A stretch of DNA of 64,000 bases from an uncultured Ruminiclostridium sp. (GTDB lineage Bacteria; Bacillota; Clostridia; Oscillospirales; Ruminococcaceae), in the NCBI GenBank assembly GCA_949878745.1, contig CATLBH010000004.1, positions 1 through 64,000 on the forward strand, written 5' to 3'. The translations under genes were made by a program, and so were the position numbers. Of the stretch, positions 4,342-54,581 are shown in pieces. Numbering within the stretch: the first letter of the stretch is position 1; every line of letters begins with the position of its first letter. The notes beneath the pieces are model-generated. The model searched no databases and was not told where the DNA came from. It saw only the letters and a list, made by a program, of their open reading frames with translations.

Positions 4342-4454
4342 TACTAATCTTTAATCATATTGTAGACAAAGTCGGAAATATGATTAAAGATTACACCCGA
4401 AACACTAATCTTTGGTCAACATTTTTTTGTCTATAATCTGACCAAAGATTAGTA
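4342..4454 (+). repeat. Double-hairpin element (DHE), copy 1
   Basis: 113-bp element bounded by TTA on both sides (4339-4341, 4455-4457). Ends TACTAATC and GATTAGTA. The first hairpin has stem TAATCTTTAATCATATT, the second CTAATCTTTGGTCA; they are joined by CACCCGAAACACTAAT. Lies between a lipoprotein gene and the hydrogenase promoter. Confidence 0.92.
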
Positions 4455-4567
4455 TTAAAAATATTATAACACGGTTTATTTTAAATTCAATTACAATTTG
4501 GTTACAGATTTTTTGATAATGCAATTTGCACAAAATTTTTAAAAAATATAAAAATTTCTCATACCCG

Positions 4568-4596
4568 TTGCATTTTTAAAAAAAATGTGATATAAT
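4568..4596 (+). promoter_or_regulatory. Predicted promoter of the sensory hydrogenase gene
   Basis: TTGCAT (4568-4573) and TATAAT (4591-4596) with a 17-base spacer. Transcription would begin near 4603, so DHE copy 2 would be part of the mRNA leader. Confidence 0.55.
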
Positions 4597-4623
4597 TGTA
4601 AATAATAGCAAAAACGGGTCTTA

Positions 4624-4734
4624 TACTAATCTTTAATCATATTGTAGACGAAGTCGGAAATATGATTAAAGATTACACCCAAAACACTAATCTTTGGTCA
4701 ACATTTTTTTCTATAATCTGACCAAAGATTAGTA
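4624..4734 (+). repeat. Double-hairpin element, copy 2 (hydrogenase leader)
   Basis: 111-bp copy bounded by TTA (4621-4623, 4735-4737). Nearly identical to copy 1; linker CACCCAAAACACTAAT. It sits between the predicted promoter and the ribosome binding site of the hydrogenase gene. Confidence 0.92.
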
Positions 4735-4793
4735 TTAAAATTCGGGATATTATTTACTTTTTATATATTTTTTATATTACGGAGGAATTAGCT

Positions 4794-6665
4794 TTGGTAC
4801 GTGTAACTGTCGACCAGAATAAGTGTATAGGCTGTAACGCCTGTATAAGAGCCTGTCCCGTGCCTTCCGCCAACAAGACGGAAAACGGTAAGGTGCAGTG
4901 CGTTTACGATGAGTGCATTCGATGCGGCGAGTGCATAAAGGCATGCCCTCACGGCGCGAGAGATTATGTTGACGATATTGACGTGCTGTTGGACCTGATG
5001 AAGGGCGGCAACGTTTCCGTCATCGTGGCTCCCGCCATCAAATCCGCCTTTGACGGAAGCTGGCGTCATGTGCTTAAATGGCTTAAAAGCAATGGCGTTC
5101 GCGAGATATACGACGGCGCTTTCGGGGCGGATATCTGCACATATATGCATATCGAATATCTCAAGTCCCACCCCGGTACAAAGATGGTGTCTCAGCCCTG
5201 CGCCGCGATAGTGAACTATGCCGAGAAGCATAAAAGCGAGCTGCTTCCGAAGCTCTCTCCCGTACAAAGTCCTCTGATGTGCGCCGCGATTTACATAAGA
5301 AAATACCTTAAAAACGACGATATTCTTATCGGGCTTACTCCCTGTCTGGCAAAGGGGGACGAGTTCGTTAATACGGAGATCATTTCCCATAACGTTACTT
5401 TCAGAAAACTGAGCGATTTCTTCAAAACGAACAAGATCGTATTCGAAAACGGCTACTGCGATTTCGAATTCAACGGCACCCGCGGCTATGACGGCGCGTT
5501 TTATCCCTTGCCCGGCGGTCTTAAGGATTGTCTCCAGGTATATCAGCCCGGTCTAAACGTTATGACCTCCGAGGGTTCTCAAAAGGTATATGAAGATCTC
5601 GACGAATATCTTAAAACCCCCACCACAAAACTGCCTGTGGTTTACGACGTGCTGTCCTGTGAATACGGGTGCAGCTCCGGTGCGGGCTCGAGAGAGAATC
5701 TGAGCACATTCAGCGCCAACGATATTATGGCCAGCGCCAAGAGATGGACGGAAAAGAACTCGCTGAAAAAGCGTCTCCATACCAATCTGTTTAAGATTCT
5801 CAAGCTGGAGGATTTCCTGAGAACCTATGAGAACCGCGCCGTCAGTATGCCTCCCACTGAGAAGGAACTGGACGAGATATTTAACAGCATGGAGAAATAT
5901 ACCGACGAGGAAAGGAACGTGAACTGTCACGCCTGCGGCTACAGCACCTGCCGTCATATGGCTTTCTCCATACATATCGGCAACAACGTTCCCGAAAACT
6001 GCGTGGTATTTGAGAAGAAAAACATCAACAGACTTAAGGAAGAGGTTGAGCTTGAACACAGTCAGCTTTCGGCTTCCGTACAAGAGATAAAGGATGAGCT
6101 TAAGACTCTTCAGGAAAAGATCGGACCCATCGCTTCCCACTCCGACGAGAATCGCGAGAAGAACGAGCTTATTGTTGATGAGATGAAGGCGCTCCAGAAG
6201 AGTATTGTGGATATTAACCGCGCGGTTGACGATATAATCGGCTCCGCCGAAAATATCAGCACCGGAATCGGCGGATACAACAAGATCCTCAAGGATATCA
6301 AGAACATTGCGGAGCAGACTAATATCTTGGCTATCAACGCTTCCATCGAGGCCGCCAACATAGGCGCGGCGGGCAAGGGCTTCGCAGTGGTTGCCGACGA
6401 GATACGCACTCTTGCAGTTCGTTCAGACGAGACCGTTAAGCGCGCCGAGGAGCACACCAAAACCATTTCCCGCAATCTGGAAAGCATCAACAGCAGCGTT
6501 GATAACATTGCCAAGCGTGTTGAGGGCACCAATGACACTGCAAACGCCACATTGCAGTCGGTTAACGAGATGAGTCAAAGCACCGCGGACATCAGCAACA
6601 GCGTTAACGACGTATTTACGGTTGTGGAGGAGATTCACGCAAGCGTTACCAGTATAACGGGCTGA
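4794..6665 (+). CDS. Sensory FeFe-hydrogenase/methyl-accepting chemotaxis fusion protein
   Basis: 623 residues. Residues 1-55 hold two 4Fe-4S motifs ([24 protein letters not shown]). Residues 75-340 form the H-cluster-type domain; the four expected cluster cysteines are present as C136 ([10 protein letters not shown]), C184 (TPCLAK), C289 and C293 ([10 protein letters not shown]). A further Fe-S domain has C378, C381, C386 and C403. Residues 430-620 form a receptor signalling domain with the conserved tip [16 protein letters not shown]. There is no membrane span, so it should be a cytosolic receptor sensing H2 or redox state and signalling to CheA; this matches the putatively chemotactic sensory hydrogenase group (C2). 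Start is TTG with GGAGG 8 bases upstream. No che or flagellar gene is in the window. Confidence 0.9.
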
Positions 6666-6669
6666 TTAA

Positions 6670-6781
6670 TACTTATCTTTGGTCAGACTATAAACAAAAA
6701 ATGTTGACCAAAGATTAGTGTTTCGAGTGTAATCTTTAATCATATTTCCGACTTCGTCTACAATATAATTAAAGATTAGTA
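6670..6781 (-). repeat. Double-hairpin element, copy 3 (inverted)
   Basis: 112-bp copy in reverse orientation to copies 1 and 2, bounded by TAA (6667-6669, 6782-6784). It starts four bases after the hydrogenase TGA stop, so the gene is bracketed by opposed copies 2 and 3. Confidence 0.92.
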
Positions 6782-6807
6782 TAACAAGTTTATTTAAAAA
6801 GTTTAAT

Positions 6808-6849
6808 AACAATAATCCCTCGGCTGAAATCGGCCGAGGGATTATTGTT
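6808..6849. terminator. Bidirectional terminator between converging genes
   Basis: Perfect 17-bp stem (AACAATAATCCCTCGGC) with 8-base loop, between the plus-strand hydrogenase gene and the minus-strand reductase gene. A/T tails on both sides suit either direction. Confidence 0.85.
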
Positions 6850-6859
6850 ATATAATGTT

Positions 6860-7480
6860 TTATCGTATAAAGTTGGTGCGTATTCCCGGTTCCCTTTCGG
6901 GGAAAGATATTCCCTTTTCTTTTCCCGCTTCAATGCATTTAAGGAGCCAGGCCACATTGTTGGCCAAGGTGCGCATGGTCTGAAGGCCTTCTTCGTCCTG
7001 TTTTACTTCTTCGGGGGTATTGCCGTGTACCTGGTTCCAGTATTGGGAGGAGACTATGGGCATACAGTTTATGGTAAAGTATTTGTTAAGCTGGTCGAAG
7101 GTGGAGGAGGCTCCGCCTCTTCGGCAGCTTACAATCGCGGCGGAGGGTTTTCCCGCAAGCTTGCCTCCGCCGGAATAAAAGACCCTGTCCATAAAGGAGG
7201 TTAAAGATCCGCCGGCGGCGGCGTAGTGAACGGGGGAGCCGAAGATAAAGCCCTGAGCGGCCTCGGCTTTTTCCAGAAACTCGGCCACTTTGTCGGCGTT
7301 GAAGCAATGTCCGGTTTTTTTGCAGGAGCCGCAGCCTATGCAGCCTTGTATCGATTTGTTACCCAGTTGGAATATTTCGGTTTCAATGTTGTTTTTTTCA
7401 AGGGTAGATTGAATTTCGGTGAGGGCGGTGTAGGTGCAGCCTTTTTCGTGGGGGCTGCCGTTTATTAGGATTACTTTCAT
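6860..7480 (-). CDS. Flavodoxin-fold NAD(P)H-dependent oxidoreductase
   Basis: 206 residues, NADPH-dependent FMN reductase/iron-sulfur flavoprotein family. The N-terminal phosphate-binding loop ILINGSPHEKGCT, the CIGCGSCKKTGHC cysteine cluster (about residues 47-59), GSPVHYAAAGGSLTSFMDRVF and the flavin-site SCRRGGA are all typical. The cysteine cluster is the kind that binds 4Fe-4S in the iron-sulfur flavoprotein subgroup, which is inference here. Cytosolic; FMN-dependent electron transfer to an unknown acceptor. AAGGAGG precedes the ATG. Monocistronic, convergent with the sensory hydrogenase gene. Confidence 0.88.
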   Translation of the reverse strand: MKVILINGSPHEKGCTYTALTEIQSTLEKNNIETEIFQLGNKSIQGCIGCGSCKKTGHCFNADKVAEFLEKAEAAQGFIFGSPVHYAAAGGSLTSFMDRVFYSGGGKLAGKPSAAIVSCRRGGASSTFDQLNKYFTINCMPIVSSQYWNQVHGNTPEEVKQDEEGLQTMRTLANNVAWLLKCIEAGKEKGISFPEREPGIRTNFIR

Positions 7481-7527
7481 TTTGGCCTCCTTGGGTTGGT
7501 TATAGTATTTTTAAGTAAAAAATAAAC

Positions 7528-7617
7528 AGGAGCGAAGCGACAAATGTCCTTTCCGCTTCCCTTTCGGACACCGAAAGGGAAGTAGGGGAGTCCGAAGGAC
7601 GTGGGCAACGCCCCCAA
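7528..7617 (-). repeat. Gene-end GC-rich hairpin element (type 1)
   Basis: Contains CGCTTCCCTTTCGG-ACA-CCGAAAGGGAAG and a GGGCAACGCCC hairpin. Member of the family also at 8122, 18139, 23151, 23482, 38876 and 54174. Inverted relative to the copy at 8122-8215, the pair enclosing a 500-bp gene-free stretch. Confidence 0.85.
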
Positions 7618-7888
7618 AAGCCACGTAATATCCGCGAACCCGCTTATAATAAAGGCTCAAGCGTTTTTATCGGTTATAAATGCGGTTGTTTTTGAATTTC
7701 TTATTTTTATATTTATGCGGCGAGGAAGGTGTTTTATTCTGTGGATTGGGGGTTGTGTGGAGAGTGAGATTTTAACGGTATTATGTCGGTTTGATTAGAC
7801 TGATGTAAAATAAGAACCATTGTGGATAACATCGTGGGGAAAAGGCTTATTGCGGCGGGGGATATTTTGCGGGGGTTGATTTTTTTAC
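7618..7888. other. Gene-free spacer
   Basis: AT-rich stretch between two repeat families; I see no supported gene, RNA or promoter in it. Confidence 0.5.
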
Positions 7889-7892
7889 TTAG

Positions 7893-8053
7893 GGAACCGC
7901 TGATTAAATCGGTGTGTGCATATTGCGCGGCAGATTTTTCGTCAGATTGTACAAATTCGACGCAGGCGGGCTAGCGCCCGTCAAGGAGAAGTTGTGCAAT
8001 CTGACGGAAAATATGCAAGCAAGATGTGCGCATCCGATTTAATCAGTGGTTCC
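7893..8053 (+). mobile_element. 161-bp palindromic MITE, copy 1
   Basis: Ends GGAACC/GGTTCC, extended as GGAACCGCTGATTAAATCGG against its near-perfect inverted partner; the whole element folds on itself around GGGCTAGCGCCC. Flanked by the 4-bp direct repeat TTAG (7889-7892, 8054-8057). No coding capacity. Identical length to the copies at 20804 and 42504. Confidence 0.92.
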
Positions 8054-8121
8054 TTAGTTTTTTTATAATCGGTAAAAACGTTTTTGTCTTTGTTTTAAGC
8101 GAGTTTGAAGGTAATACGGGG

Positions 8122-8215
8122 TTTTTGGGGGCGTTGCCCCCGTCCTCCGGACTCCCCTACTTCCCTTTCGGTGTCCGAAAGGGAAGCGGAAAGGACGATT
8201 GTCGCTTCGCTCCTT
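8122..8215 (+). repeat. Gene-end GC-rich hairpin element (type 1)
   Basis: GGGGGCGTTGCCCCC hairpin, CTTCCCTTTCGGTGTCCGAAAGGGAAG hairpin core and GTCGCTTCGCTCC tail. It sits 15 bases beyond the gyrA stop codon, in the 3' region of that gene. Confidence 0.85.
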
Positions 8216-8230
8216 CTTTTTCTTTTTTTA

Positions 8231-10861: not shown

Positions 10862-10892
10862 TATTTTTTAATTCCTTTTTTTGTGATTTTTT

Positions 10893-11504: not shown

Positions 11505-11566
11505 GGGGGTGGGTTCCTTTCTCTTGCGGAGGGGGGTGCTTACCGCAAGGGGGATGAATATTTTTT

Positions 11567-12345
11567 ATTAAAGGTCGATTTCCTTTTTCAATGTCTTATT
11601 TTTGCACCGGCCGTGCTGGGCTACTCCAGCAAGTGGTGGGAATAAGTAAGTTTTGCTTACCGCAAGGGTGGAGGTTTTTATCGAAAGCCGATTCCTTTTT
11701 ACAATGCTTTATTTATTACACGAGCCGTGCAGAACCGCTCCCGCGGGGGCATAAGGTGACACCGAAGGGGGGGAGAAAGTGAACAGGCTCCGCAGGTTAA
11801 TTAAATAAGCTTTAGATAAGCGTAGCACGTGTCCAATACACGGTTTTGGCGAAGCCAAAATTGCGGACAGCGTCCGCAAAGTGTGTTGGACGTACTTCTG
11901 TTTGCGTAGCAAACAGAAGTACTGCACTCCTCCCCCCCCTTAGGTTTCACCTTAAGAATCCCTTCCTTACCCCCCTCTGGGTGTTTTATTGTCAATATGC
12001 CTTTCACTCAAATAAAATGTTGTTCCGATGATTGCTGTTTTCGTATGTTTTGTTTGACTCTGGTGGTTTTATAAAACTGCTCCCAATAAAGCTTTTTCGT
12101 CCGATTTTCTTGATTACCTATCGGTTATTGCCAATGAGTGCTTACCCGTGAAATACTTTGCTTTTGTCTTGCGTATCAAACTCCGCAAACCGTTCCATCA
12201 AGCAATGCTACTCCTACACCAATAACTACCCAACAGCAGGGGGCGCAGCCCAAATTTTCCTAACGGAAAATTTGTCGCCGCTCCGCAAGCTCCGCGTCGG
12301 CTCACTCCGCATTCGCTCCGTTCGCGGCTGCGCCGCAGGTGGGTT
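11567..12345 (+). repeat. Large dispersed repeat block, copy 2
   Basis: Same order of segments as copy 1 at 1-835: a 112-bp tandem pair, GCACGAGCCGTGCAGAACCGC, AAGGTGACACC... with its inverted partner GGTTTCACCTT near 11946, CTGGGTGTTTTATTGTCAATA, and the GC-rich tail with a GGAAAATTT hairpin. The loop between the inverted arms is different from copy 1 and contains its own hairpins (GCGGACAGCGTCCGC; TACTTCTGTTTGC...GCAAACAGAAGTA). It separates gyrA from gyrB. Confidence 0.9.
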
Positions 12346-12381
12346 GGAGCGGAAACAAGTTTGGTTTTTTTGATGCCGAGT

Positions 12382-12780: not shown

Positions 12781-12812
12781 TTTTACTCCTTTCACAGCGG
12801 AAGGATTTTAAA

Positions 12813-14929: not shown

Positions 14930-15367
14930 AAAATTTTCGATTTTATATAACCTTTTTTTGGGGGAAAATTAACAAATTTATATTTTTTTTGGATTTTTTG
15001 AAACCAAAAGGGATTTTTTGCGTTATTATATAATGAGGGGAATTAATACTAATACTAATTTTTGGTCAGATTATAGACAAAAAATGTTGATCAAAGATTA
15101 GTATAATTCCTCATTGAAGGTGTACACAAAAAATCTTCGCAAAAACCATATATCGAAGTTTTTGCTTGAATTTTGTATACTTTTTAATGGGAATCAGTAG
15201 GTTTAAAGCGGGTGATATAAAGCGCTTTGATTTGGGAGCAAATTTGAAAGGCGGGGCGGTAAATAAATTCTTGTTAAACCTCCTTGTTAAGGGAAAAATA
15301 CGTATTGAACCGTGTTCAAAACCGTATTTTGTACGTTGATCAATTCAGTTAGGAACGGTGTACACCA
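14930..15367. other. Divergent intergenic region between gyrB and the sigma factor gene
   Basis: AT-rich. Holds a single-hairpin repeat (15054-15103), a long imperfect inverted repeat at 15122-15183 (GTACACAAAAAATCTTCGC against a partner ending TTTTGTATAC), a hairpin AAAATACG/CGTATTTT at 15295-15330 with an inner TGAAC-N3-GTTCA, and GGTGTACACC next to the sigma start. The last features could bind a regulator or the sigma factor itself, which is speculation. Confidence 0.5.
15054..15103 (-). repeat. Single-hairpin form of the DHE family
   Basis: 50-bp element with only the CTAATTTTTGGTC/GATCAAAGATTAG hairpin, flanked by TAA on both sides, plus an extra TAATAC copy on the left. It lacks the linker and second hairpin. 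Confidence 0.8.
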
Positions 15368-18004: not shown

Positions 18005-18238
18005 ACCCGCCAAATCCGTTTCAAAATAAGAGTTGGCGGTTTTTATGCCATAAGCTTGTTTTTAACTCCGAAGCCCCGCTTGCGGCTTCTAACGTTTGTG
18101 TTTACGCGACAAGCTTATAGTCTTGTTTTTTTGTTCTCTCCTTGTGGCAGTGGGGCTTTGACCCACACCCCGCTTCCTTTTCGGTGTCCGAAAAGGAAGC
18201 GAAAAGGACATTTGCGCGGCTTCGCCGCTTTTTTTTTA
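18005..18238 (+). repeat. Composite gene-end repeat (CCCGCCA hairpin to GCGGCTTCGCCGC tail)
   Basis: A CCCGCCA/TGGCGGT hairpin, an AAGCTTGTTTTT...TCTAACGTTT segment, then the GC-rich gene-end element (18139-18235, type 2, with CTTCCTTTTCGG-TGT-CCGAAAAGGAAG and GCGGCTTCGCCGC followed by T residues). Same order at 23340-23580 and, inverted, at 23151-23375 and 54174-54510. Confidence 0.85.
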
Positions 18239-20736: not shown

Positions 20737-21013
20737 TACTAATCTTTAATCATATTGTAGACGAAGTCGGAAATATGATTAAAGATTATACCCGAAACAC
20801 TAAGGAACCGCTGATTAAATCGGTGTGTGTATATTGCGCGGCAGATTTTTCGTCAGATTGTACAAATTCGACGCAGGCGGGCTAGCGCCCGTCAAGGAGA
20901 AGTTGTGCAATCTGACGGAAAATATGCAAGCAAGATGCGCGCATCCGATTTAATCAGTGGTTCCCTAATCTTTGGTCAACATTTTTTGTCTATAATCTGA
21001 CCAAAGATTAGTA
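20737..21013 (+). repeat. Double-hairpin element, copy 5, split by a MITE
   Basis: Bounded by TAA (20734-20736, 21014-21016). Linker region CCCGAAACACTAA is interrupted by the MITE; joining the two parts and removing one CTAA restores a normal 112-bp element. Confidence 0.93.
20804..20964 (+). mobile_element. 161-bp palindromic MITE, copy 2, nested in a DHE
   Basis: GGAACC...GGTTCC, flanked by CTAA (20800-20803, 20965-20968), which occurs once in intact DHE copies at this place. This is a direct before/after demonstration of insertion with 4-bp duplication. Confidence 0.95.
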
Positions 21014-22286: not shown

Positions 22287-23141
22287 ATGACCATAGCCGA
22301 CCAAATACAAAAGCTCCGCATACAAAAAGGCTTAACTCAGGAGCGCCTTGCGGAAATGCTCGAGGTTTCCCGTCAGTCCATCTCCAAGTGGGAATTGGGA
22401 CAAGCCGTACCCGACGTGGAAAAAATCATAAGAATGAGCGAGCTTTTTGACGTTTCCACCGACGCCATTTTGCTTAACACCCCCGAAATTCAAGAGGAAA
22501 AGAAAAATCCGCTTCACTTAGGCAGTATTTACCTTATAGTCAAGGATTTTGAAAAATCCGTGGATTTCTACGAAAAATTTCTTGACGTGAAAGTAGACAA
22601 CAGATGCCGAAGCGGGAACAAATTCGTGGAATTTTACGTTGACAACAAGTGTATTGCCTTGATGAACGAGGAAAACCTGATAGGACACAGTACCGACCTC
22701 AACAGCCCCTACAAATTTGTCCTGAACTTCTGGGTTGAAGATCTTAACGCCGAATACGAGCGGGTAAAAGTTTTAAAAATCGGAAACGTAACCGGTATAC
22801 TGGAAGCGTATCCCACCTATCACTATTTTCATCTTACCGATCCGGATAATAATGTTATTGAAATTACGGGAGGTTTTCATATGAACGAAAATATTTGTCA
22901 AAGCTGCGGAATGAATATGGGGGAAAGCGATTACGGAACCAATGCCAACGGAAGTTTTAATCGGGAATATTGTAAGTATTGCTTTGCTAACGGAGGGTTT
23001 GTAAAAAATCAAACTTTGGAGGAAAGTATAGAAAGCTGTATTCCTTTTCTTGTTCAAGACGGAACTTGTAAAACGGAAGAAGAAGCGAGAGAAATGCTGA
23101 AAAAAGAAATGCCGAAGCTGAAAAGGTGGAAAAATTTATAA
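22287..23141 (+). CDS. Three-domain fusion: Xre-type HTH, VOC/glyoxalase-like, zinc ribbon
   Basis: 284 residues. Residues 1-65 are a Cro/CI-type helix-turn-helix (LRIQKGLTQERLAEMLEVSRQSISKWELGQ). Residues about 73-200 match a glyoxalase/VOC fold (GSIYLIVKDFEKSVDFYEKFL ... YHYFHLTDPDNNVIEITGG). Residues 205-284 are a zinc-ribbon domain of the Zn_ribbon_2 type (ICQSCGMNMGESDYGTNANGS, YCKYCFANGGF), with four cysteines. Probably a small-molecule- or metal-responsive transcription factor; it may act on its own promoter. The three-way fusion is unusual; each domain alone is common. ATG follows AAGGAAAGG. Confidence 0.88.
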   Translation: MTIADQIQKLRIQKGLTQERLAEMLEVSRQSISKWELGQAVPDVEKIIRMSELFDVSTDAILLNTPEIQEEKKNPLHLGSIYLIVKDFEKSVDFYEKFLDVKVDNRCRSGNKFVEFYVDNKCIALMNEENLIGHSTDLNSPYKFVLNFWVEDLNAEYERVKVLKIGNVTGILEAYPTYHYFHLTDPDNNVIEITGGFHMNENICQSCGMNMGESDYGTNANGSFNREYCKYCFANGGFVKNQTLEESIESCIPFLVQDGTCKTEEEAREMLKKEMPKLKRWKNL

Positions 23142-23150
23142 AAAAATAAA

Positions 23151-23580
23151 AAAAGCGGCGAAGCCGCGCAATACTTTTTTCGCTTCCTTTTTGGGCTACA
23201 AAAAGGAAGTGGGGTGTGGGGCAAAGCCCCACCGCCACCGGTTAAGATCAAAAAACAAGCTTATAAGTCAGTCGCGTAAAATCAAACGTTAGAAGCCGCG
23301 AAGCGGGGCTTCGGAGTAAAAAAACAAGCTTACGGCGCAAAACCCGCCAAATCTCGTTTTGAAACGGGGTCGGCGGGTTTGTGGCTTAAGTTTTTTCTTT
23401 TTATCCCGAAGCGGCGGCTTCGCCCGCTTCTAACGTTTGTTTTTACGCGACTGATTATCGGCTTGTTTTTTGCTCTCGCCTTGCTGCGGTGGGACTTTAC
23501 CTCACACCCCGCTTCCTTTTCGGTGTCCGAAAAGGAAGCGAAAAGGACATTGCGCGGCTTCGCCGCTTTTTATTTTTTTT
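23151..23580. repeat. Inverted pair of composite gene-end repeats
   Basis: Left copy (23151-23375) is inverted to right copy (23340-23580); they share a CCCGCCA...TGGCGGG-like middle. Each has the GGACACCGAAA-type hairpin (left copy changed to TTTTTGGGCTACAAAAA) and the GCGGCGAAGCCGC hairpin. The pair fills the whole gap between two converging genes. Confidence 0.88.
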
Positions 23581-29223: not shown

Positions 29224-29311
29224 TACCAATCCCTTTTTAAACTGACAAAATACACACAGTTTAAAAAGGGATTGCCCCCGAAACACTAATCCAACAGTTT
29301 AAAGATTAGTA
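29224..29311 (+). repeat. Double-hairpin element, second stem set (copy 11)
   Basis: Ends TACCAATC and GATTAGTA; stem AATCCCTTTTTAAACT/AGTTTAAAAAGGGATT; linker CCCCCGAAACACTAAT. Flanks TCA (left) and TAA (right). The second hairpin is eroded. Confidence 0.85.
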
Positions 29312-33954: not shown

Positions 33955-34470
33955 CATATCGACACAAAAACGCCCGAAAGAACAATAAACAATAAAAGAA
34001 ACAACCCAAGGGTAAAAAACCAACATACGATAATAGCACTCATAGAACTACCATTTTATTCGAGCGAAACCCATACCGACACAAAAAACGTTCGGAAGGA
34101 GATAATAAAAGAAACATCCTAAAAGTAAAACACAACATACAAAAATAGCAATCATCGAAACAACATCTTATGAGAGAGAAACCTATATTGACAATAAAAC
34201 GCCCAGAGGGGGGTAAGGAAGGGATTCTTAAGGTGAAACCTAAGGGGGAGAGAGTGGGGGACAGGCTACGCCGATTAGTATATTTACGATAAAAGAAACC
34301 GCTTAATAAAAGCAAATCAACATTGAGTAGCCTGTTCACCATCTCCCCTCCTTTGGTTTCACCTTAATCCCCTCGCGGGAGCGGTCCTGCACGGCCCGTG
34401 CATTAAATAAAGCATTGTAAAAAGGAATCGACTTTCGATAAAAACTTTTCCCCCATTTTAAAAAAACCTT
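33955..34470 (-). repeat. Large dispersed repeat block, copy 3 (inverted, partial)
   Basis: Reverse of the blocks at 1 and 11567. The segment around GTTTTATTGTCAATA is present as three degenerate tandem units (about 33955, 34073, 34186; period near 115). Then AAGGTGAAACC ... GGTTTCACCTT arms around a variable loop, and GCGGTCCTGCACGGCCCGTGC. Confidence 0.85.
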
Positions 34471-38222: not shown

Positions 38223-38861
38223 ATGGAACATAATATGTCCGGAAAAGTAAAGCTATTCGACGGAATCATAAGGCAAAATATGGTTTTGATGAGCGGCCTT
38301 TTTGCCGGCCCCGTAATAGGAGCGGCCACAAATCTAATAAATTCCCTTGTGATAGCCTTGGCTTTCACTCTCATAACAATGGTTACAGCGGGGATTTGCC
38401 GTCTGCTGCCCAAAAAATTTGCCTTTGCGGTAAGAATAGTGCTTTACGCCCTTATCGCGTCGGCGGTATATATTCCCGTAATCCTGCTGGCAGAGCTTAT
38501 TTTCGGATCAGACGCGGTAAACTCCGTTTCTCTTTACTTAGCTATTTTGGTAACCAATCCTTTGATAATGGCCAAAACCGAAAGCCGCTTTTTTCTCCGT
38601 TCGGTGCCTATGATGTTCAAGGATATGGCGGGGTTTGTGATAGGCTTTGATATGTCTTGTATTCTTGTGGGAGCGCTGAGAGATATTCTTTCCGACAATA
38701 TGCTATTAAATACCATAATTCCTTTGCCTTTTCAAATGTCGGCCATGGAAAGCGTTTACGGGGGATTTATTTTGGTGGGAATATTGGCGGGACTTTTTCG
38801 ATTTGTTTACAGAAGAGCGTTAAGGAGAAAAAATCATTTGATCTCGGAGCGTAAAAATTAA
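38223..38861 (+). CDS. RnfE/NqrD-like membrane protein lacking cluster cysteines
   Basis: 212 residues with six membrane segments. SLYLAILVTNPLIMAKTESRFF, MAGFVIGFDMSCILVGALRDIL fit the RnfE/RnfA family. The two half-motifs that normally supply 2Fe-2S cysteines are replaced: GLCP reads GLFAGP and the NC of the second half-repeat reads NP. AAGGAAG precedes the ATG; 55 bases separate it from the RnfD-like gene. Confidence 0.82.
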   Translation: MEHNMSGKVKLFDGIIRQNMVLMSGLFAGPVIGAATNLINSLVIALAFTLITMVTAGICRLLPKKFAFAVRIVLYALIASAVYIPVILLAELIFGSDAVNSVSLYLAILVTNPLIMAKTESRFFLRSVPMMFKDMAGFVIGFDMSCILVGALRDILSDNMLLNTIIPLPFQMSAMESVYGGFILVGILAGLFRFVYRRALRRKNHLISERKN

Positions 38862-38875
38862 GAAAAAAAGAAAAA

Positions 38876-38976
38876 GGAAAAAAGGAGCGAAGCGACGTCC
38901 TGTCCTTTCCGCTTCCCTTTCGGACACCGAAATGGAAGTAGGGGGGTCCGAAGGACGGGGGCAACGCCCCCAAATG
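38876..38976 (-). repeat. Gene-end GC-rich hairpin element (type 1)
   Basis: Lies 15 bases after the RnfE-like stop: GGAGCGAAGCGAC, CGCTTCCCTTTCGGACACCG, GGGGGCAACGCCCCC. One stem base is mismatched (AAATGG). Confidence 0.85.
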
Positions 38977-39081
38977 CACTAACCTATATTTTCAGTAAAC
39001 GTCTTAAAATCAAAAATTAAGCGCTTTTATCCGTCGGATTTCCGTAAAAAAACTTAAAAAGGAAAAAGGAACATAAAATAA

Positions 39082-42471: not shown

Positions 42472-42503
42472 TCATTGGTGCAGAGATTGGCTTGTTATAC
42501 TAA

Positions 42504-42664
42504 GGAACCACTGATTAAATCGGATGCGCACATCTTGCTTGCATATTTTCCGTCAGATTGCACAACTTCTCCTTGACGGGCGCTAGCCCGCCTGCGTCGA
42601 ATTTGTACAATCTGACGAAAAATCTGCCGCGCAATATGCACACACCGATTTAATCAGCGGTTCC
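42504..42664 (-). mobile_element. 161-bp palindromic MITE, copy 3
   Basis: Reverse orientation to copies 1 and 2; flanked by CTAA (42500-42503, 42665-42668). It sits in the left edge of a single-hairpin DHE-type repeat. Confidence 0.93.
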
Positions 42665-42668
42665 CTAA

Positions 42669-42718
42669 TACTAATCTTTGGTCAGATTATAGAAAAAAAT
42701 GTTGACCAAAAATTAGTA
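42669..42718 (-). repeat. Single-hairpin form of the DHE family
   Basis: 50 bp, CTAATCTTTGGTC stem, flanked by TAA (42666-42668, 42719-42721). Confidence 0.82.
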
Positions 42719-42859: not shown

Positions 42860-43834
42860 ATGCTTGGAAAAAACATTAAACTCCTTATCCTGCCGCTATT
42901 CCTGTCGGCCGCATTATGTCTGTCCGCGTGCAGCGCGCCTTCCGAAGCTGTCGGAGAGGATTTAAACACCCCTCTTCTCGGCGCCGAAGACCCTTCCGAA
43001 AAAAGCGAAGACAGTATGAAATCGGAACCCGAAAATGCCTCCGAAGAAAAAGAAGAAACCGCCGACGCGGAGGAAACAACAACCGAAGAAAGAGAAAATG
43101 ATCCCCAAAGTGAAGAAACCCAACGGTCTTTCGAAAACACACCCGAATCTTCCGAATCCGTTTCGGAACACGCCTCCGCTCCCCCTTCGACTACGACTCA
43201 GCCCCCTCAAACCTCGGCGGCAACGGAAGCCGTAACCGCTCCCCCCGTTTCCGTGACGGAAAACACATTGCCTCCGGCCACAGAACCTTTGCCTACGGAG
43301 ACTGTGGCGACCGAAACCGTTTCGGATCCTGTTTCCGAACCTGTTTCGGAACCCGTTTCCGAACCCGTAACCGAAGCGCCCTCCGACTCCGCTTTAACTG
43401 GAGGAAGATACGACCAGCGTTACTGTACCGAAAAGGAAAAGGAATTTGCGGACAGAGTGTTTGAGCTTACAAACGCGGAAAGAGCCAAAAACGGACTTCC
43501 CGCTTTTGAAAAAATGGACATTCTGAAAACCGTGGCGCTTACAAGAGCATGGGAGCTTACGGTGGAATACCGCGCGGATCATACCCGCCCCGACGGCACC
43601 ACCTGTACGGGAGCCTTTAACGAAAACGGTATAATTTACGGCGGCTGGGGCGAAAATATAGCCGCGGGACAGGATTCCCCCGAAAGCGTTGTGAACGCGT
43701 GGATGAACAGTCCTTCCCACCGCGCCGCAATCTTAAGCAATGATTACACCTATATGGGCGTTGGCTATTATTACATAAAGGATGATTATCAAAGCTACTA
43801 TCATTTCTGGACTCAGGAATTCTATCATTATTAA
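42860..43834 (+). CDS. CAP (SCP/PR-1) domain lipoprotein
   Basis: 324 residues from ATG 42860; a GTG at 42848 is an alternative, and neither has a clear ribosome site. Lipoprotein signal with lipobox LSAC (about 22-25). Residues 30-185 are a disordered Glu/Ser/Thr/Pro linker with VSEPVSEPVSEPV repeats. Residues 195-324 form a CAP domain: FELTNAERAKNGLPAF, TRAWELTVEYRADHTRPDG, GENIAAG, VVNAWMNSPSHRAAIL, GVGYYYI. Surface-exposed; bacterial CAP proteins have no firmly established activity. A second CAP gene follows. Confidence 0.88.
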   Translation: MLGKNIKLLILPLFLSAALCLSACSAPSEAVGEDLNTPLLGAEDPSEKSEDSMKSEPENASEEKEETADAEETTTEERENDPQSEETQRSFENTPESSESVSEHASAPPSTTTQPPQTSAATEAVTAPPVSVTENTLPPATEPLPTETVATETVSDPVSEPVSEPVSEPVTEAPSDSALTGGRYDQRYCTEKEKEFADRVFELTNAERAKNGLPAFEKMDILKTVALTRAWELTVEYRADHTRPDGTTCTGAFNENGIIYGGWGENIAAGQDSPESVVNAWMNSPSHRAAILSNDYTYMGVGYYYIKDDYQSYYHFWTQEFYHY

Positions 43835-45722: not shown

Positions 45723-45761
45723 TAAGATGTAGGTAACCAATGGTTTCTTGTTTGACGTATT

Positions 45762-45996: not shown

Positions 45997-46048
45997 ATAT
46001 TCTGTCGGGCGAAAAGCCCGCCTGCTTCAAAAGAAAGGAAATAAAAGT

Positions 46049-49000: not shown

Positions 49001-50326
49001 GGATATCACAGCGATTCAAAATACGACGGCTATCACCGCCAGCCCTATTTCACCAAGGAAAGCAAAAAGACCCATACCATTTTAGCCCCCCAGATGGCTC
49101 CCATTCACTTTGATCTTTTGGAACAGGCCTTCAGGTATTCGGGCTACAATATGGTTATTCTTAAAGATTATACAAAGGATATTGTTGACAAGGGCTTAAA
49201 GTACGTTAACAACGACGCCTGCTATCCCACCATACTGACGGTAGGCTCGCTTATGTCTGCTCTGGACAGCGGAAAATACGACCTGGACAACACCTCGGTG
49301 CTGATTACCCAGACGGGCGGTGCCTGCCGCGCCACAAATTACGTGGGAATGATAAAAAAAGCCCTTAAGGAAGGCGGCTATCCCCAGATTCCCATTATCT
49401 CGGTGAATATGGTGGGCATGGAAAAGAACCCCGGATTTAAATACACCCCCTCTCTTATAGTAAGGGCAATGCTGGCCTTGGTGTACGGCGATACCTTAAG
49501 CCGCTGCCTGTACCGTGTGAGACCTTACGAGATCGAGAAGGGCAGCGCCAACAGACTTTACCAACAGTGGAACGAAAAACTCAAAAAGTCCCTTAAAAGC
49601 TTAAGCATAAGCGAATATAAGAAAAATATAGCCGCCATTGTAAAGGATTTCAACGAGCTTCCCACTCTCGACACCGAAAAGCCGAGAGTCGGCATAGTGG
49701 GCGAAATTCTGGTAAAATATCACCCCGTAGCGAACAATTTCGTGGTGGATCTTGTGGAATCAGAAGGAGCCGAAGCGGTAGTGCCCGATCTTATGGGCTT
49801 TATCTACTTTATAATGGATCACGCCAACACCAGAAGGGAGCTTCTCACCGTCTCCAATTCCCGTTACTTCTTTATGAACAAGCTTATAGGGTTTTTGGAG
49901 CACCTGCAAAAGCCCTATCTTGAAGCGGTAAAGGATACCAAATTCGGAAGCCCCATGAGAATTTCCGAAATGAGAAAATTGGTGGACGGCATTGTCTCCA
50001 CAGGCAACATAGCGGGAGAAGGCTGGTTTCTTACCGCCGAAATGGTGGAGCTTATGCACGGCGGCGTAAACAATATAATCTGTATGCAGCCCTTCGCCTG
50101 CCTCCCCAATCACGTTACGGGAAAAGGCGTTATAGGAGAACTGAGAAGAAGAAACCCACTTTCCAACATCGTAGCCGTGGACTACGACCCCGGCGCATCG
50201 GAGGTTAACCAAATCAACCGCATAAAGCTTATGCTTTCCCACGCGGTGAGAAACGGAAACAGCGGTGATAAGGAAGAGATAAAGATTGAGGTTAAGGATA
50301 AATATTCGAAGCTTATAAACGCGTAG
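46049..50326 (+). CDS. Acyl-CoA dehydratase activase-related fusion (two activase units plus DUF2229/HgdB-like)
   Basis: 1425 residues from the ATG with AAAGGAAA upstream. Two ASKHA-type ATPase units ([12 protein letters not shown] at 3; [13 protein letters not shown] near 315), each with the cysteine that binds the bridging 4Fe-4S cluster ([22 protein letters not shown]). Then a cysteine cluster [12 protein letters not shown], a DUF2229 region ([27 protein letters not shown]) and a C-terminal HgdB-like part. Homologous activases drive ATP-dependent one-electron reduction of 2-hydroxyacyl-CoA dehydratases. The single-chain form is widespread in Clostridia; its substrate is not established. 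No acyl-CoA gene is nearby. Confidence 0.92.
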
Positions 50327-50352
50327 TGTGTAAAAGGCGGTGAATCTACGTC

Positions 50353-50671
50353 CGAAGTAAATATCAATATTAAAGTTGACGCGGCGTTAAAACAGGAAGC
50401 GGAAGCGCTGTTCAGCGATTTTGGCTTGAATATGTCATCGGCGATATCTATGTTTTTGCGCTCGGCGGTCAATAACGACGGAATCCCCTTTGAAATAAAG
50501 CGGCCTGTCCCCAACGAGGAAACCAAAGCCGCTTTAGACGAATACGAGGAAATGAAGAGCGATTTTGTCAAATATAAGCGATATTCCTCATTTGACGAAG
50601 CTTTGGACGAGGTGTTTCAAGTGAATATTGCGGATTTCGTGAGTGCCATATCGAACCTGACCGGCTTTTGA
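50353..50671 (+). pseudogene. DinJ/RelB-like antitoxin without a standard start codon
   Basis: The reading frame encodes SEVNINIKVDAALKQEAEAL, then SDFGLNMSSAISMFLRSAVNNDGIPFE, the DinJ-type ribbon-helix-helix antitoxin. Where the start should be stands ACG (50353-50355) behind AAAGGCGG; no ATG, GTG or TTG lies between it and the upstream in-frame stop. Start at ACG or an internal TTG (50426) is conceivable, the latter removing the DNA-binding part. The C-terminus runs into toxin sequence in another frame, ending at 50671. Confidence 0.75.
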
Positions 50672-50742
50672 TTTATCGCGTGGAAAAAGACGAGATCGAA
50701 TTGTTTTTATACAGAACGGGAACACATTCCGATCTGTTTTAA
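50617..50742 (+). pseudogene. YafQ/RelE-type toxin remnant
   Basis: The frame ending at 50742 reads EYCGFRECHIEPDRLLIYRV then EKDEIELFLYRTGTHSDLF, the C-terminal 40 residues of YafQ-family mRNA interferases including the active-site-proximal HSDLF end. The first half of the toxin gene is missing, replaced by the end of the antitoxin frame, so an internal deletion joined the two. Confidence 0.85.
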
Positions 50743-50783
50743 AGAAAAAATACGATTCACCCCATAGAAGAAAGGACAAAAAA

Positions 50784-51728
50784 ATGGCAGAAGTCAGATT
50801 CAGCACGTCAAACGACAGCAAACCCGAAGGCAAAAAATACGGAAAATTCGTTATTATTGCGATTGTGATATTTTTGCTGATAGTGGTGCTTTTCAACTCA
50901 TTCAGTATAGTAAACGAGGGCTATATCGGCGTAAAATACCGCTTCGGCGCCATAACGAGAGCGGATATGACCGCGGGACTCAATATGCACATTCCCTTTA
51001 TCGAGGAAATAGTTCAGGTGGACACGAGGGAACAGGTTTACGCCGTCACCACCGACGCCTACACCAGCGACACCCAGTCGGTGCAGTCGCTTCAGCTTAA
51101 GCTTAATTACTGCTACGACGGCACAAAGCTCAGCAACATTATAAGAAACATAGGAATCGCCAATGTGGAAACAAAGCTTCTGGTGCCCAACGTGCAGAAG
51201 ATAGCCAAGGACGCCATAGGAAAGGTCAAAGCGGAACAATTGGTACAATCCCGCGCCGACGTTACCGCCGAAATACAGAATTCCCTGACGGAAATACTCA
51301 GTGAGTACGGAGTGGTAGTTACCGCCTTCGCCATTGAAAACCTAAATTTCGACAGCGCCTTCGAGGAATCAATTCAAGCAAAGGTAATAGCCGAACAGGA
51401 TGCTCTCAAAATGGAAAACAAAACCAAGGCCATAGCCGAAGAGGGAAAACAAACCGTAATCGCCGCCCAAGCCGAGGCGGATTCCAAAAAGATAGCCGCC
51501 GAAGCGGAAGCGGAAGCCATAAGACTTATTCAGGAGCAGCTGGCCAATTCCCCCAACTACACCGACTATCTTAAGGTTGAGCGCTGGAACGGCGTCCTTC
51601 CCCAGGTGGTAAGCGACGGAGCGAATCCTTTTGTGGCTCTCGGCTCATCCAATACATCCTCCGGTAATTCCTCCGGCGGAGCTGTCCCAAGAAATACTGC
51701 CCCTGCGGTTCCAGAAACGGCTGAATAA
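50784..51728 (+). CDS. SPFH/prohibitin-family membrane protein
   Basis: 314 residues. One N-terminal membrane segment (about 20-42, VIIAIVIFLLIVVLFNSF), a SPFH/band-7 domain (45-235, with VNEGYIGVKYRFG, VDTREQVYAV, TAFAIENLNFD), and an Ala/Glu-rich coiled coil (AEQDALKMENKTKAIAEEGK). The end is Ser/Pro rich. A membrane scaffold or HflK-like protein, by family. AGAAAGGAC precedes the ATG. Upstream of pcrA by 32 bases. Confidence 0.93.
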   Translation: MAEVRFSTSNDSKPEGKKYGKFVIIAIVIFLLIVVLFNSFSIVNEGYIGVKYRFGAITRADMTAGLNMHIPFIEEIVQVDTREQVYAVTTDAYTSDTQSVQSLQLKLNYCYDGTKLSNIIRNIGIANVETKLLVPNVQKIAKDAIGKVKAEQLVQSRADVTAEIQNSLTEILSEYGVVVTAFAIENLNFDSAFEESIQAKVIAEQDALKMENKTKAIAEEGKQTVIAAQAEADSKKIAAEAEAEAIRLIQEQLANSPNYTDYLKVERWNGVLPQVVSDGANPFVALGSSNTSSGNSSGGAVPRNTAPAVPETAE

Positions 51729-51760
51729 ACGACAAAAAGAACAGGATAAAAAACAATAAT

Positions 51761-54133
51761 ATGAATAATTTTACTCAAGTAAAAAAGCAGTGTATAGACA
51801 GATTTTTTTCGAGAACCAATCCCAGACAGCGCGAGGCGATTTATCGCCTGAACGGCGCCGTTCTCATCATTGCGGGAGCGGGAAGCGGAAAGACCACCGT
51901 TTTGTGCAATCGCATAGCCAATATGCTGTTGTTCGGCAAAAGCTTCCACACTGAATTTGAGCGGGACTTTTCATCGGAGGACGAAGCCTTTCTTTTAAGC
52001 TACGCCGACGGAAAAGAGGAAAACACCCCCGAAAACACCGCCCGCCTTTCAACGCTGCTGGGCTTTGAACGCGCCGCGCCGTGGCGCATAATGGCGGTCA
52101 CCTTTACCAATAAGGCGGCGGGCGAGCTTCGCGAAAGACTGGAGCGTATGAACGCGGGAGGAAAAGACGTTTTTGCGGGAACATTTCACTCCGCCTGTGT
52201 AAAAATGCTGAGAAGGGGCATTGAGGAGCTGGGCTATAAAAGCTCCTTCACTATCTATGACACCGACGACAGTCTGAGGGTCATAAAAGAAGTGATGAAA
52301 TACCTGAACATCTCCGACAAGGCCTTCAGCCCCAAGGAGTTTCAAAGCAAAATAAGCCGCGCCAAGGACAAGCTTATTACCCCCGAACGCTTTTCCGTGT
52401 TCGGCGAGGGGGGAAAGCCCGATTTCAAGCTGGAAAAAGCCCGCGATATCTACACCGAATACCAAAAGCGCCTTAAGTCCGCCAACGCGCTTGACTTCGA
52501 CGATATTATCATGAAAACGGTGGAGCTGCTGGAAAAAAGTCCCTCCGTGCTTGAGCGGTGGCAAAACAGCTTTGATTACATAATGGTGGACGAGTATCAG
52601 GACACCAATATGGCCCAGTACAAGCTGATTTCCCTTTTGGCGGCAGGCAGCGGGAATCTTTGCGTGGTGGGCGACGAGGACCAGAGTATTTACCGATTCA
52701 GAGGGGCCACAATAGAAAATATTCTCAGCTTCGAAAAGGAGTTTCAAGCCAAGGTTATTAAGCTGGAGCAAAATTACCGCTCCACCGAAACAATCCTCAA
52801 CGCCGCCAACGCGGTTATCTGCAACAATACCCAAAGAAAAGGAAAAAATCTATGGAGCGATCTGGGCGAGGGGGAAAAGATAACCCTCCGAACCCTGCAC
52901 ACCGAAACCGAGGAAGCCAACTTTGTGTCGGAAAAAATACTGGAGCTGAAAAAGGACGGAAGCAGCTTTAACGACAACGCCGTTTTATACCGCACCAACG
53001 CCCAATCCCGAAACATAGAGCTTTCTCTCTCCAAAAACGGAATACCCTACCGCATTATAGGCGGCACCAAGTTTTATGAGCGGAAGGAAATAAAAGACAT
53101 AATCGCCTATTTGAGCGTTATCAACAATCCTGCCGACAACCTGAGACTGAACCGAATAATAAACGAACCGAAACGAGGAATAGGCGACGCCACCCAGGCG
53201 GAAATTTACCGAATAGCCGACGGCCTCGGCATAACGCCCATAGAGGTAATGGAGCGCTCCGCCGAATTCGTTACCATCGAAAAGAAAAGCAAGGTGCTTG
53301 AACCGCTGGGAAGAATGTTCCGCGAGCTCAGCGAAAACGAAGACAGGGATCTGGACGGAATAATCGACGACGTTCTGGCCGAAACCGGCTACGAGTCCAT
53401 GCTCCTGACCCAAGGGGACGAGGGCGCGGCAAGGCTCGAAAACATCAAGGAGCTTAAATCCGGCGCAATCGCCTTTATGGAAGAAAACGAGGAGCACAGC
53501 CTTTCCGATTATCTGGAAAACCTCGCCCTTATAACCGACCTTGACAGCTATGAAGCGGGGGAGGACCGAGTGGTGCTGATGACCATGCACGGCGCGAAGG
53601 GGCTGGAATTCGAAAACGTTTTCATTGTGGGCGCGGAGGAAAACATTTTCCCCTCCTACCGTTCCCAGCTGGACAGCAGCGAGATAGAAGAAGAACGCCG
53701 TCTCGCTTACGTGGCCATAACGAGAGCGAAAAAAAGGCTCTTTATTTCCAACGCGAAGCAAAGGCTTCTGTTCGGCTCCACACAGAGAAACAAGCTTTCA
53801 AGATTTGTGGGCGAAATCCCTTCGGAGTACCTTGAAGTCAACGACAGTACGCTTGCCGCGGATACGGAAGCCCCCAGAACGCGCAGACCGCAGAAAATCG
53901 GATATTTACAGCAGGAGGCCCGCCACGCTCAGGTGGAAAAAATGGCAGCGCGAATCGCTTCGGCTCATGCCGAAAGCTTTTCGGCGGGAGACAGGATACA
54001 TCACAGGGTGTTCGGAGACGGAACGGTGATTACCGCGAAGCCTATGGGGAACGATACTCTTTTGGAAATAGCGTTTGATACCGTGGGGACTAAAAAGATT
54101 ATGGCGAATTTCGCCAAGGCGGAAAAAATATAA
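51761..54133 (+). CDS. pcrA: ATP-dependent DNA helicase PcrA/UvrD
   Basis: 790 residues. SF1A motifs in order: GAGSGKTT (Walker A, about 47), AVTFTNKAAGELRER (Ia), VDEYQDTN (II), GDEDQSIYRFRGA (III), LEQNYRST (IV), MTMHGAKGLEFENVF (V), YVAITRAKKRLF (VI). The extreme C-terminus has the RNA-polymerase-binding-like fold (GDRIHHRVFGDGTV). It unwinds DNA 3'-5' in repair and replication restart. It carries an extra 40-residue acidic insertion after motif I (about 70-100). Confidence 0.95.
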   Translation: MNNFTQVKKQCIDRFFSRTNPRQREAIYRLNGAVLIIAGAGSGKTTVLCNRIANMLLFGKSFHTEFERDFSSEDEAFLLSYADGKEENTPENTARLSTLLGFERAAPWRIMAVTFTNKAAGELRERLERMNAGGKDVFAGTFHSACVKMLRRGIEELGYKSSFTIYDTDDSLRVIKEVMKYLNISDKAFSPKEFQSKISRAKDKLITPERFSVFGEGGKPDFKLEKARDIYTEYQKRLKSANALDFDDIIMKTVELLEKSPSVLERWQNSFDYIMVDEYQDTNMAQYKLISLLAAGSGNLCVVGDEDQSIYRFRGATIENILSFEKEFQAKVIKLEQNYRSTETILNAANAVICNNTQRKGKNLWSDLGEGEKITLRTLHTETEEANFVSEKILELKKDGSSFNDNAVLYRTNAQSRNIELSLSKNGIPYRIIGGTKFYERKEIKDIIAYLSVINNPADNLRLNRIINEPKRGIGDATQAEIYRIADGLGITPIEVMERSAEFVTIEKKSKVLEPLGRMFRELSENEDRDLDGIIDDVLAETGYESMLLTQGDEGAARLENIKELKSGAIAFMEENEEHSLSDYLENLALITDLDSYEAGEDRVVLMTMHGAKGLEFENVFIVGAEENIFPSYRSQLDSSEIEEERRLAYVAITRAKKRLFISNAKQRLLFGSTQRNKLSRFVGEIPSEYLEVNDSTLAADTEAPRTRRPQKIGYLQQEARHAQVEKMAARIASAHAESFSAGDRIHHRVFGDGTVITAKPMGNDTLLEIAFDTVGTKKIMANFAKAEKI

Positions 54134-54173
54134 GCAGTTAAAGGCAAAAAAGCAAAAAAAAGAAAAAAACAAA

Positions 54174-54510
54174 AAAGGCGGCGAAGCCGCCCGATGTCCT
54201 TTTCGCTTCCTTTTCGGACACCGAAAAGGAAGTGGGGTGTGGGGCAAAGCCCCACCGCCACCGCTTAATACTAATCTTTGGTCAAGATATAGACAAATAA
54301 TATGGAGGACCAAAGATTAGTGCTTTGGGTGCAATCTTTAATCAAGTCTACGACTTGATTAAAGATTGGTATAAGATCAAAAAACACCCCTATAAGCCCG
54401 ACGCGTAAAAACCAACGTTAGAAGCGGGCGAAGCCGCCGCTTCGGGACAAAAAGAAAAAACTTAAGCCACAACCCGCCAACCCCGTCTTAAAACGAGATT
54501 TGGCGGGTTT
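54174..54510 (-). repeat. Composite gene-end repeat, inverted, with an inserted DHE
   Basis: Gene-end element (54174-54263) with GGCGGCGAAGCCGCC, CTTCCTTTTCGGACACCGAA and GGGGCAAAGCCCC, then the AACGTTAGAAGC segment and the CCCGCCAA...TTGGCGGG hairpin at 54474-54507. Compared with 23151-23375 the DHE at 54269-54371 is an extra insertion. Confidence 0.88.
54269..54371 (-). repeat. Double-hairpin element, copy 8, inserted in a composite repeat
   Basis: Flanked by TAA (54266-54268, 54372-54374). Removing it and one TAA gives CTTAAGATCAAAAAAC, as in the intact composite copy at 23241. Linker GTGCTTTGGGTG. Confidence 0.93.
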
Positions 54511-54531
54511 AATCCTGTAAGCATGAAATTA

Positions 54532-54581
54532 TACTAATCTTTGGTCAACATTTTTCTCTATAATCTGACCAAAGATTAGTA
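54532..54581 (+). repeat. Single-hairpin form of the DHE family
   Basis: 50 bp, CTAATCTTTGGTCAACATT stem, flanked by TTA (54529-54531, 54582-54584), plus an extra GTATTA on the right. Confidence 0.82.

What the first reader, a model, noticed from the sequence alone, without database searches (positions are those of the whole stretch)
4342..54581. Double-hairpin repeat family with a conserved linker but exchangeable stems
Nine two-hairpin copies (4342, 4624, 6670, 17850, 20737, 21091, 29224, 45631, 54269) and three single-hairpin copies (15054, 42669, 54532). All share TACTAAT/ATTAGTA-type ends and, in the two-hairpin form, linker CACCCRAARCACTAAT. Three stem sets, unrelated in sequence but each self-complementary, occur around the same linker. 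That suggests selection for structure plus a recognised linker, or modular exchange of hairpins. I know of no described family with this layout.
Basis: partly seen in the sequence, partly recalled or inferred. Interest (0 to 1): 0.85.

Follow-up and report, generated by a model that had tools for sequence, protein, structure and literature searches.

The report
Double-hairpin mobile DNA element family
The repeats are copies of a tiny jumping DNA element of one bacterial genus: each is two hairpins joined by a nearly constant ten-base linker, and the paired hairpin arms have changed in step many times, probably through DNA copying and not because an RNA fold is needed.

Summary
The linker occurs 168 times in the host genome (reversed-pattern control 1). 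A covariance model finds the element in 8 of 60 sampled congeners, and in 1 of 85 sampled genera of the order.

The copies behave as non-autonomous transposons (MITE type): ends TACYAAT...ATTAGTA, a 3-bp TNA target duplication (97 of 109 readable own copies, shuffled mean 52.5, maximum 70) and empty sites with a single TNA. Single-hairpin copies have the same ends.

Stem sets are mostly diverged lineages; hybrids exist but are few (one clear full hybrid among 109 own copies). Arms change on both sides in 21 of 30 pairs, while the linker is kept in 97 of 100 two-hairpin candidates picked without it.

The pairing looks DNA-level: in hairpin 1, G.T and A.C mismatches are equally common (36, 37), orientation to genes is even (22/22), 12 of 29 pair changes are transversions and a few loops are inverted. 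Template-switch homogenisation of arms fits best; selection on a DNA fold is not excluded.

No transposase with these ends was recognised in 83% of the host genome. New variant of a known kind.

The parts
4342..4454 (+). double-hairpin element, stem class A; flanks TTA / TTA
4624..4734 (+). double-hairpin element, class A; flanks TTA / TTA
6670..6781 (-). double-hairpin element, class A; flanks TTA / TTA
15053..15103 (.). single-hairpin element (hairpin 2 of class A); flanks TAA / TAA
17850..17960 (-). double-hairpin element, class C; flanks TTA / TTA
20737..21013 (+). double-hairpin element, class A, split by an insert of another repeat family at about 20804-20964; flanks TAA / TAA
21091..21202 (+). 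double-hairpin element, class A; flanks TAA / TCA (do not agree)
29224..29311 (+). double-hairpin element, class B with a right end like class A; flanks TCA / TAA (do not agree)
42669..42718 (.). single-hairpin element (hairpin 2 of class A); flanks TAA / TAA
45631..45722 (+). double-hairpin element, class B; flanks TAA / TAA
54269..54371 (-). double-hairpin element, variant of class A; flanks TTA / TTA; paralogous empty site at 23183-23304
54532..54581 (.). single-hairpin element (hairpin 2 of class A); flanks TTA / TTA

Best explanation
A family of miniature non-autonomous DNA transposons, about 50 bp with one hairpin and 78-125 bp with two. Shown: ends TACYAAT...ATTAGTA; insertion duplicates a 3-bp TNA target; single-hairpin copies have the same ends; hairpin arms co-vary while the linker is kept. 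Inferred: a DDE transposase of the TNA-duplicating sort (IS5 family, IS1031-like or a relative) binds the ends and inserts the element, mostly seen between genes; that enzyme is not identified. Inferred: the long DNA palindromes undergo template switching during replication, which copies one arm onto the other and now and then flips the loop, so each lineage drifts to a new but self-complementary stem. Inferred: the two outer ends of a class stay alike because one transposase must use both. The linker lies outside the palindromes and escapes this turnover; that it is kept suggests a use in mobilisation (protein site or hinge between hairpins), the least certain step.
For: Target triplets agree in 97 of 109 own copies (shuffled mean 52.5, maximum 70). 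Empty sites with one TNA, paralogous and one orthologous (G016 against G001). Single-hairpin copies with both ends: 20 own, 1 G001. G.T and A.C mismatches in hairpin 1: 36 and 37; one-sided changes within classes 20 and 22. Orientation to co-directional genes 22 same, 22 opposite; 79 of 80 placed copies between open frames. Two-sided changes: 92 pairing against 4 not pairing, about 8 two-sided expected; 12 of 29 distinct pair changes are transversions. Inverted loops: 3 against 102 forward in class B, the three being two or three events; one three-letter loop in a variant of class A. IS1031 group: TNA with a 3-bp repeat (PMC12016507, passage).
Against: No transposase with these ends recognised in 2.21 of 2.67 Mb. 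The IS1031-like transposase of the host is not found in repeat-bearing G016, G008, G050, G065, G071. 12 of 109 own copies have unequal triplets; in G001, G016 and the G008/G052/G050 set agreement (13 of 16, 24 of 27, 15 of 16) is no higher than the best of 5000 shuffles, because most triplets are TTA. Some paralogous empty sites of the 54269 copy read TCT or TCA, not TTA. Loop inversion missed by a strict automatic scan (0 in 145). Hairpin 2 at fixed arm length shows A.C 93 and G.T 43, where loop letters are mixed in. The linker's use is a guess.
Confidence: 0.6

Rival explanations
1. Structure-recognising transposition: the enzyme reads the folded strand (hairpins plus linker) and not the stem letters, so selection keeps the fold while stems drift.
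For: 21 of 30 pairs with changes on both sides; linker kept with new stems in G008; one G016 copy has three hairpins with two linkers; no sequence-specific partner enzyme found.
Against: A 3-bp duplication is not expected of known single-strand (Y1) systems (recalled). Class B, the most numerous class, has only a short hairpin 2; single-hairpin copies carry the same ends and duplications. The outer ends co-vary beyond shuffles (score 0.261 against 0.117), which points to sequence reading too.
Confidence: 0.2
2. Structured RNA (terminator, processing site or small RNA) kept for the host, spread by an unrelated mobile process.
For: Strong covariation; mostly between genes.
Against: Orientation 22/22; G.T not favoured over A.C in hairpin 1; many transversion pair changes; no Rfam match at gathering score in the window; not found outside one genus of 85 sampled.
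Confidence: 0.06
3. REP/REPIN-like repeats moved by a Y1 (RAYT-type) transposase.
For: Palindromic units, single, paired or tripled; REP dimers can join different stems with kept spacers (PMC3733652, passages).
Against: 3-bp target duplication. Y1 genes: 12 of 31 congeners, none in copy-rich G001 and G016 (86% and 76% complete), and present in several genomes without the element. Ends are not GTAG or CGTC.
Confidence: 0.06
4. Modular exchange of hairpins by recombination at the linker is the main source of the stem sets.
For: L046 15856 joins hairpin 1 of class B to hairpin 2 of class A, with unequal target triplets; further partial or foreign hybrids by eye.
Against: One clear full hybrid in 109 own copies (the script's mixed labels B/C, A/C, A/D, D/C are loose matching, not hybrids). 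Classes align along their length and several share the loop letters TTTGTCTATA, so they are diverged relatives.
Confidence: 0.05

Closest known systems
MITEs of IS5-family elements, IS1031 subgroup (and eukaryotic PIF/Harbinger-type MITEs)
   Same: Short, non-coding, inverted ends, 3-bp duplication of TNA (IS1031: PMC12016507, passage; TWA in PIF/Harbinger and C|TNA|G in NuwaII: PMC4482050, passages).
   Different: Ends TACYAAT match no IS found here; two hairpins with a kept linker; stems turn over.
REP dimers, BIMEs and REPINs
   Same: Palindromic units found singly, in pairs or more; some dimers join different stems, and some spacers are conserved (PMC3733652, passages).
   Different: TNA duplication; no GTAG or CGTC tag; presence does not follow Y1 genes.
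Other double-hairpin or structured mobile repeats of bacteria (Efa-1, Pae-1, bcr1)
   Same: Double hairpin predicted for Efa-1 and Pae-1; bcr1 listed with a conserved structure (PMC2267715, passages).
   Different: No comparison of sequences was made here; stem turnover around a fixed linker is not mentioned in the passages seen.
Template-switch homogenised hairpins
   Same: Compensatory changes in one step and inverted loops are named footprints (PMC8794818, passages; PMC8604942, start of abstract in the listing).
   Different: Those deal with rRNA hairpins and yeast genes; here a mobile element.

Membership tests
MITE (non-autonomous DNA transposon) | Terminal inverted repeats | tested here: met
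   TACYAAT...ATTAGTA at both ends; 7-8 letters common to the classes
MITE (non-autonomous DNA transposon) | Target-site duplication and empty sites | tested here: met
   97 of 109 equal triplets; empty sites
MITE (non-autonomous DNA transposon) | Many copies, short, no gene | tested here: met
   168 linker matches; 78-125 bp doubles
MITE (non-autonomous DNA transposon) | A partner element with the same ends | tested here: inconclusive
   none recognised in 83% of the host genome, open frames judged by eye; draft genomes
IS1031-derived MITE | 3-bp TNA duplication | tested here: met
   signature from PMC12016507
IS1031-derived MITE | Ends shared with an IS1031 element | tested here: not met
   the IS1031-like element of the host ends in TAAGAACCTGTACCAATA; transposase does not follow the repeat
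REP/REPIN | Linked Y1 transposase | tested here: not met
   no Y1 in G001 and G016; incomplete genomes
IS630/Tc1-type MITE | 2-bp TA duplication | tested here: not met
   three letters are duplicated, middle one variable
Structured RNA | G.U tolerated over A.C on the transcribed strand | tested here: not met
   36 and 37 in hairpin 1
Structured RNA | Covariation of paired positions | tested here: met
   also expected of DNA palindromes under template switching. Number of further pair types is not beyond shuffles (42; 44 of 500 reach it)

The most novel reading that the evidence does not exclude
A transposition system that reads folded DNA: two hairpins of free sequence held apart by a constant ten-base linker, inserted with a TNA duplication by an enzyme not yet known. 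It would be read by shape plus linker, somewhat as integron attC sites are read by shape (recalled), but insert like a DDE transposon.
Probability: 0.15. Interest if true: 0.8.

Novelty: new variant of a known kind. Interest (0 to 1): 0.45.

Why it matters
It gives a many-copy natural record of how DNA palindromes change: many stem variants whose arms changed in step around a kept linker. It bears on whether covariation always proves RNA selection: here strong covariation comes with equal G.T and A.C mismatches in hairpin 1 and even orientation. Covariance models alone could label such a MITE a structured RNA. The missing partner transposase and the kept linker are testable loose ends.

Tried and rejected
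Partner enzyme: family searches in the own genome and/or relatives for PF01609, PF13359, PF13340, PF13586, PF05598, PF01797, and end pairs around genes. Nothing recognised with TACYAAT ends. Other transposase families were not searched. The host's IS1031-like element holds TACCAAT inside its end, the letters with which class B begins; I treat it as coincidence. In G001 a copy lies directly beside the start of an IS5-type gene (L167); another piece of such a gene (L170) shows no such ends, so I draw no link.

Linker in viral contigs: 0. The single matches in G019 and G022 show no hairpins and look like chance. Phage, plasmid and E. coli collections were not searched.

Empty sites against G001: most alignable blocks are 65-85% identical, so few intergenic sites compare; the list (178 places, output cut in the middle) was read only in part. 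A first count of linker-free picks (59, 16, 21) counted some elements twice and was replaced.

Papers: searches listed no description of this family that I recognised; only open-licence papers are held and listings were mostly not opened, so this is weak evidence of absence.
Full report
What is there. The linker CACCCRAARCACTAAT (up to 1 mismatch) occurs 168 times in the host genome against 1 for the reversed pattern, 151 times in congener G001, 121 in G016, 4 in G008, 1 each in G019 and G022, and in none of the other 35 genomes of that sample of 41. By contig number and length, G001 and G016 look like the Oscillospiraceae MAGs JAAVIF01 and JAAVIG01. The nine doubles and three singles of the window are recovered by a covariance model made from 20 varied copies, four of them window copies.

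Anatomy. A double copy reads: TNA, TACYAAT, stem 1, loop, stem 1', ATTR, CACCCRAARC, ACTAAT (or ACTATT), stem 2, loop, stem 2', ATTAGTA (or AATAGTA), TNA. Single copies carry one hairpin between the same ends. One G016 copy has three hairpins and two linkers (L083, linkers at 11817 and 11855 on the minus strand). Of 80 own copies that could be placed among open frames of 100 codons or more, 79 lie between them; copies with no frame on one side were dropped and not counted.

It moves. The middle letters of the two TNA triplets agree in 97 of 109 own copies with both ends readable (184 linker places by a loose pattern; shuffled mean 52.5, maximum 70). In G001 it is 13 of 16, in G016 24 of 27, in G008/G052/G050 15 of 16, none of these above the highest shuffle, since most triplets are TTA. 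An earlier subset gave 60 of 70 against 31.2. In the window 10 of 12 agree; 21091 and 29224 do not. Joined flanks find empty sites with a single TNA: the 54269 copy against paralogous repeats at window 23183-23304 and in L024 (other paralogues read TCT or TCA there); L020 18040 against L025 10167 (TCA); L019 11581 against copies of another repeat; L089 3788 against L102 3313; L054 9149 against L042 3116; and L102 4246 (G016) against L063 2066 (G001) (TAA). One copy sits inside another (L053). This is how a transposon with a 3-bp staggered cut at TNA behaves.

Stems and linker. Among 145 distinct full-length copies of several genomes there are 28 different 8-nt stem starts. On the 20-sequence alignment 96.9% of 548 cells pair (73.5% in shuffles; at most 48.5% when slid by 1-3 columns); 21 of 30 pairs have changes on both sides (16.0 in shuffles), 132 cells have such changes (39.1); the number of further pair types, 42, is reached by 44 of 500 shuffles. 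The alignment was made by sequence, but the structure was read from its first row, so the slid control leans towards it. The outer ends co-vary less (78.6% paired, score 0.261 against 0.117; two of the five measures are reached by more than a third of shuffles). My first searches used the linker, so I also picked elements by ends, equal triplets and a stem: 74 of 77 two-hairpin candidates in the own genome, 8 of 8 in G001 and 15 of 15 in G016 hold it within 2 mismatches of 13 letters; single-hairpin elements numbered 20, 1 and 0. Worn copies without clean ends are outside this test. G008 had 4 linker-pattern matches but 37 model matches: in the 14 copies read, the core CACCCNAARCACT is kept and mainly the next letters, which belong to stem 2, differ.

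Exchange is a side effect. Hairpin 1 and hairpin 2 classes go together. Reading the list (its labels are loose for classes C and D), I find one clear full hybrid in 109 own copies, L046 15856, with unequal triplets (TCA/TTA). Partial hybrids by eye: window 29224, L020 8646, L052 166; in other genomes L150 5320, L154 3983 and L284. The classes align along their length and several share loop letters: diverged relatives with some recombination.

DNA level, not RNA. In hairpin 1 of 131 distinct doubles, 92.5% of 1703 cells are Watson-Crick (65% with shuffled partners); G.T and A.C mismatches are 36 and 37. In an aligned-arm count the figures are 19 and 12 (hairpin 1, 160 copies) and 9 and 4 (hairpin 2, 158 copies), and among one-sided changes in four class comparisons 20 and 22. 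Hairpin 2 at fixed arm length gives 43 and 93, but there class B adds loop letters. RNA selection should favour G.U on one strand; no clear excess appears. In the class comparisons 92 cells changed on both sides to another Watson-Crick pair and 4 changed without pairing, where about 8 two-sided changes are expected; 12 of 29 distinct pair changes are transversions, which cannot pass through G.U. Copies share inherited changes, so cells are not independent events. Orientation to co-directional neighbours is 22 same, 22 opposite.

Loop inversions. In class B 102 loops run forward and 3 are reversed (L036 15689, L054 9149, L256 7265; the last two share a flank and may be one event); two further script hits, L053 6572 and L071 16549, are not inversions of the copy's own loop. 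L038 5714 has the reverse complement of the three-letter loop of the 54269 copy. A strict automatic scan found none in 145 copies. Compensatory changes in one step and inverted loops are footprints of template switching (PMC8794818, passages); arm homogenisation and spacer inversion are stated at the start of the abstract of PMC8604942. I take this as the likeliest cause of stem turnover; the inversions are few.

Which enzyme. TNA with a 3-bp repeat is given for the IS1031 group (PMC12016507, passage). The host has an IS1031-like element with an open transposase gene on the window's contig (C4, 92.6 kb) with other ends. Its protein finds nothing at E 0.001 in repeat-bearing G016, G008, G050, G065, G071, weak matches in G001 and G052, and one in G005, which lacks the repeat. 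Y1 genes occur in 12 of 31 congeners, not in G001 or G016. None of 27 end pairs in 2.21 Mb of the host encloses a transposase that I recognise by eye. The partner is unknown.

Spread. The model matches 8 of 60 genomes of the genus at E up to 0.001 (62 candidates scored per genome, so copy numbers of the rich genomes are lower bounds) and 2 of 147 genomes of the order at E up to 0.0001, both of this genus, out of 85 genera (strict filters).

Verdict. A MITE-type family whose two-hairpin layout, kept linker and concerted stem turnover are unusual: a new variant of a known kind.

Noticed in passing
window 7889-8062, 20801-20973, 42499-42668: A second repeat family of about 160-170 nt (ends GGAACCGCTGATTA / TAATCAGTGGTTCC) flanked by CTAA or TTAG, probably a 4-bp duplication; it splits the 20737 copy, and a shorter form carries double-hairpin inserts elsewhere.
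   Followed up: partly
window 7497-8230, 18127-18212, 23124-23580, 38853-38977, 54147-54271: A third repeat family with CTTCCYTTTCGG...CCGAAARGGAAG, partly as large inverted pairs (85% arms at 7512-7680 / 8062-8230).
   Followed up: no
window 1-751, 11563-12287, 34105-34445: Further repeats of 113-221 nt, some in tandem (113-nt step near 39-264).
   Followed up: no
window 43311-43386: Short tandem CCGAACCCGTTTCC-like repeat of 12-nt step, perhaps coding.
   Followed up: no
L019 18442, L037 18619, L041 1773, L046 16185, L054 9080: Five of six places with TTTAACACACGATGTG are followed at once by a double-hairpin element, of differing subclass and right flank: a repeated target or recombination between copies.
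   Followed up: no
G016 contig ends, e.g. C10:1-112, C16:3-114: Many G016 contigs begin or end within an element copy, so the repeat breaks assemblies and copy numbers are underestimated.
   Followed up: no
L230 10431-11489: Two class B copies in opposite orientation with equal target triplets flank one gene (40-nt inverted ends), a possible composite unit.
   Followed up: no
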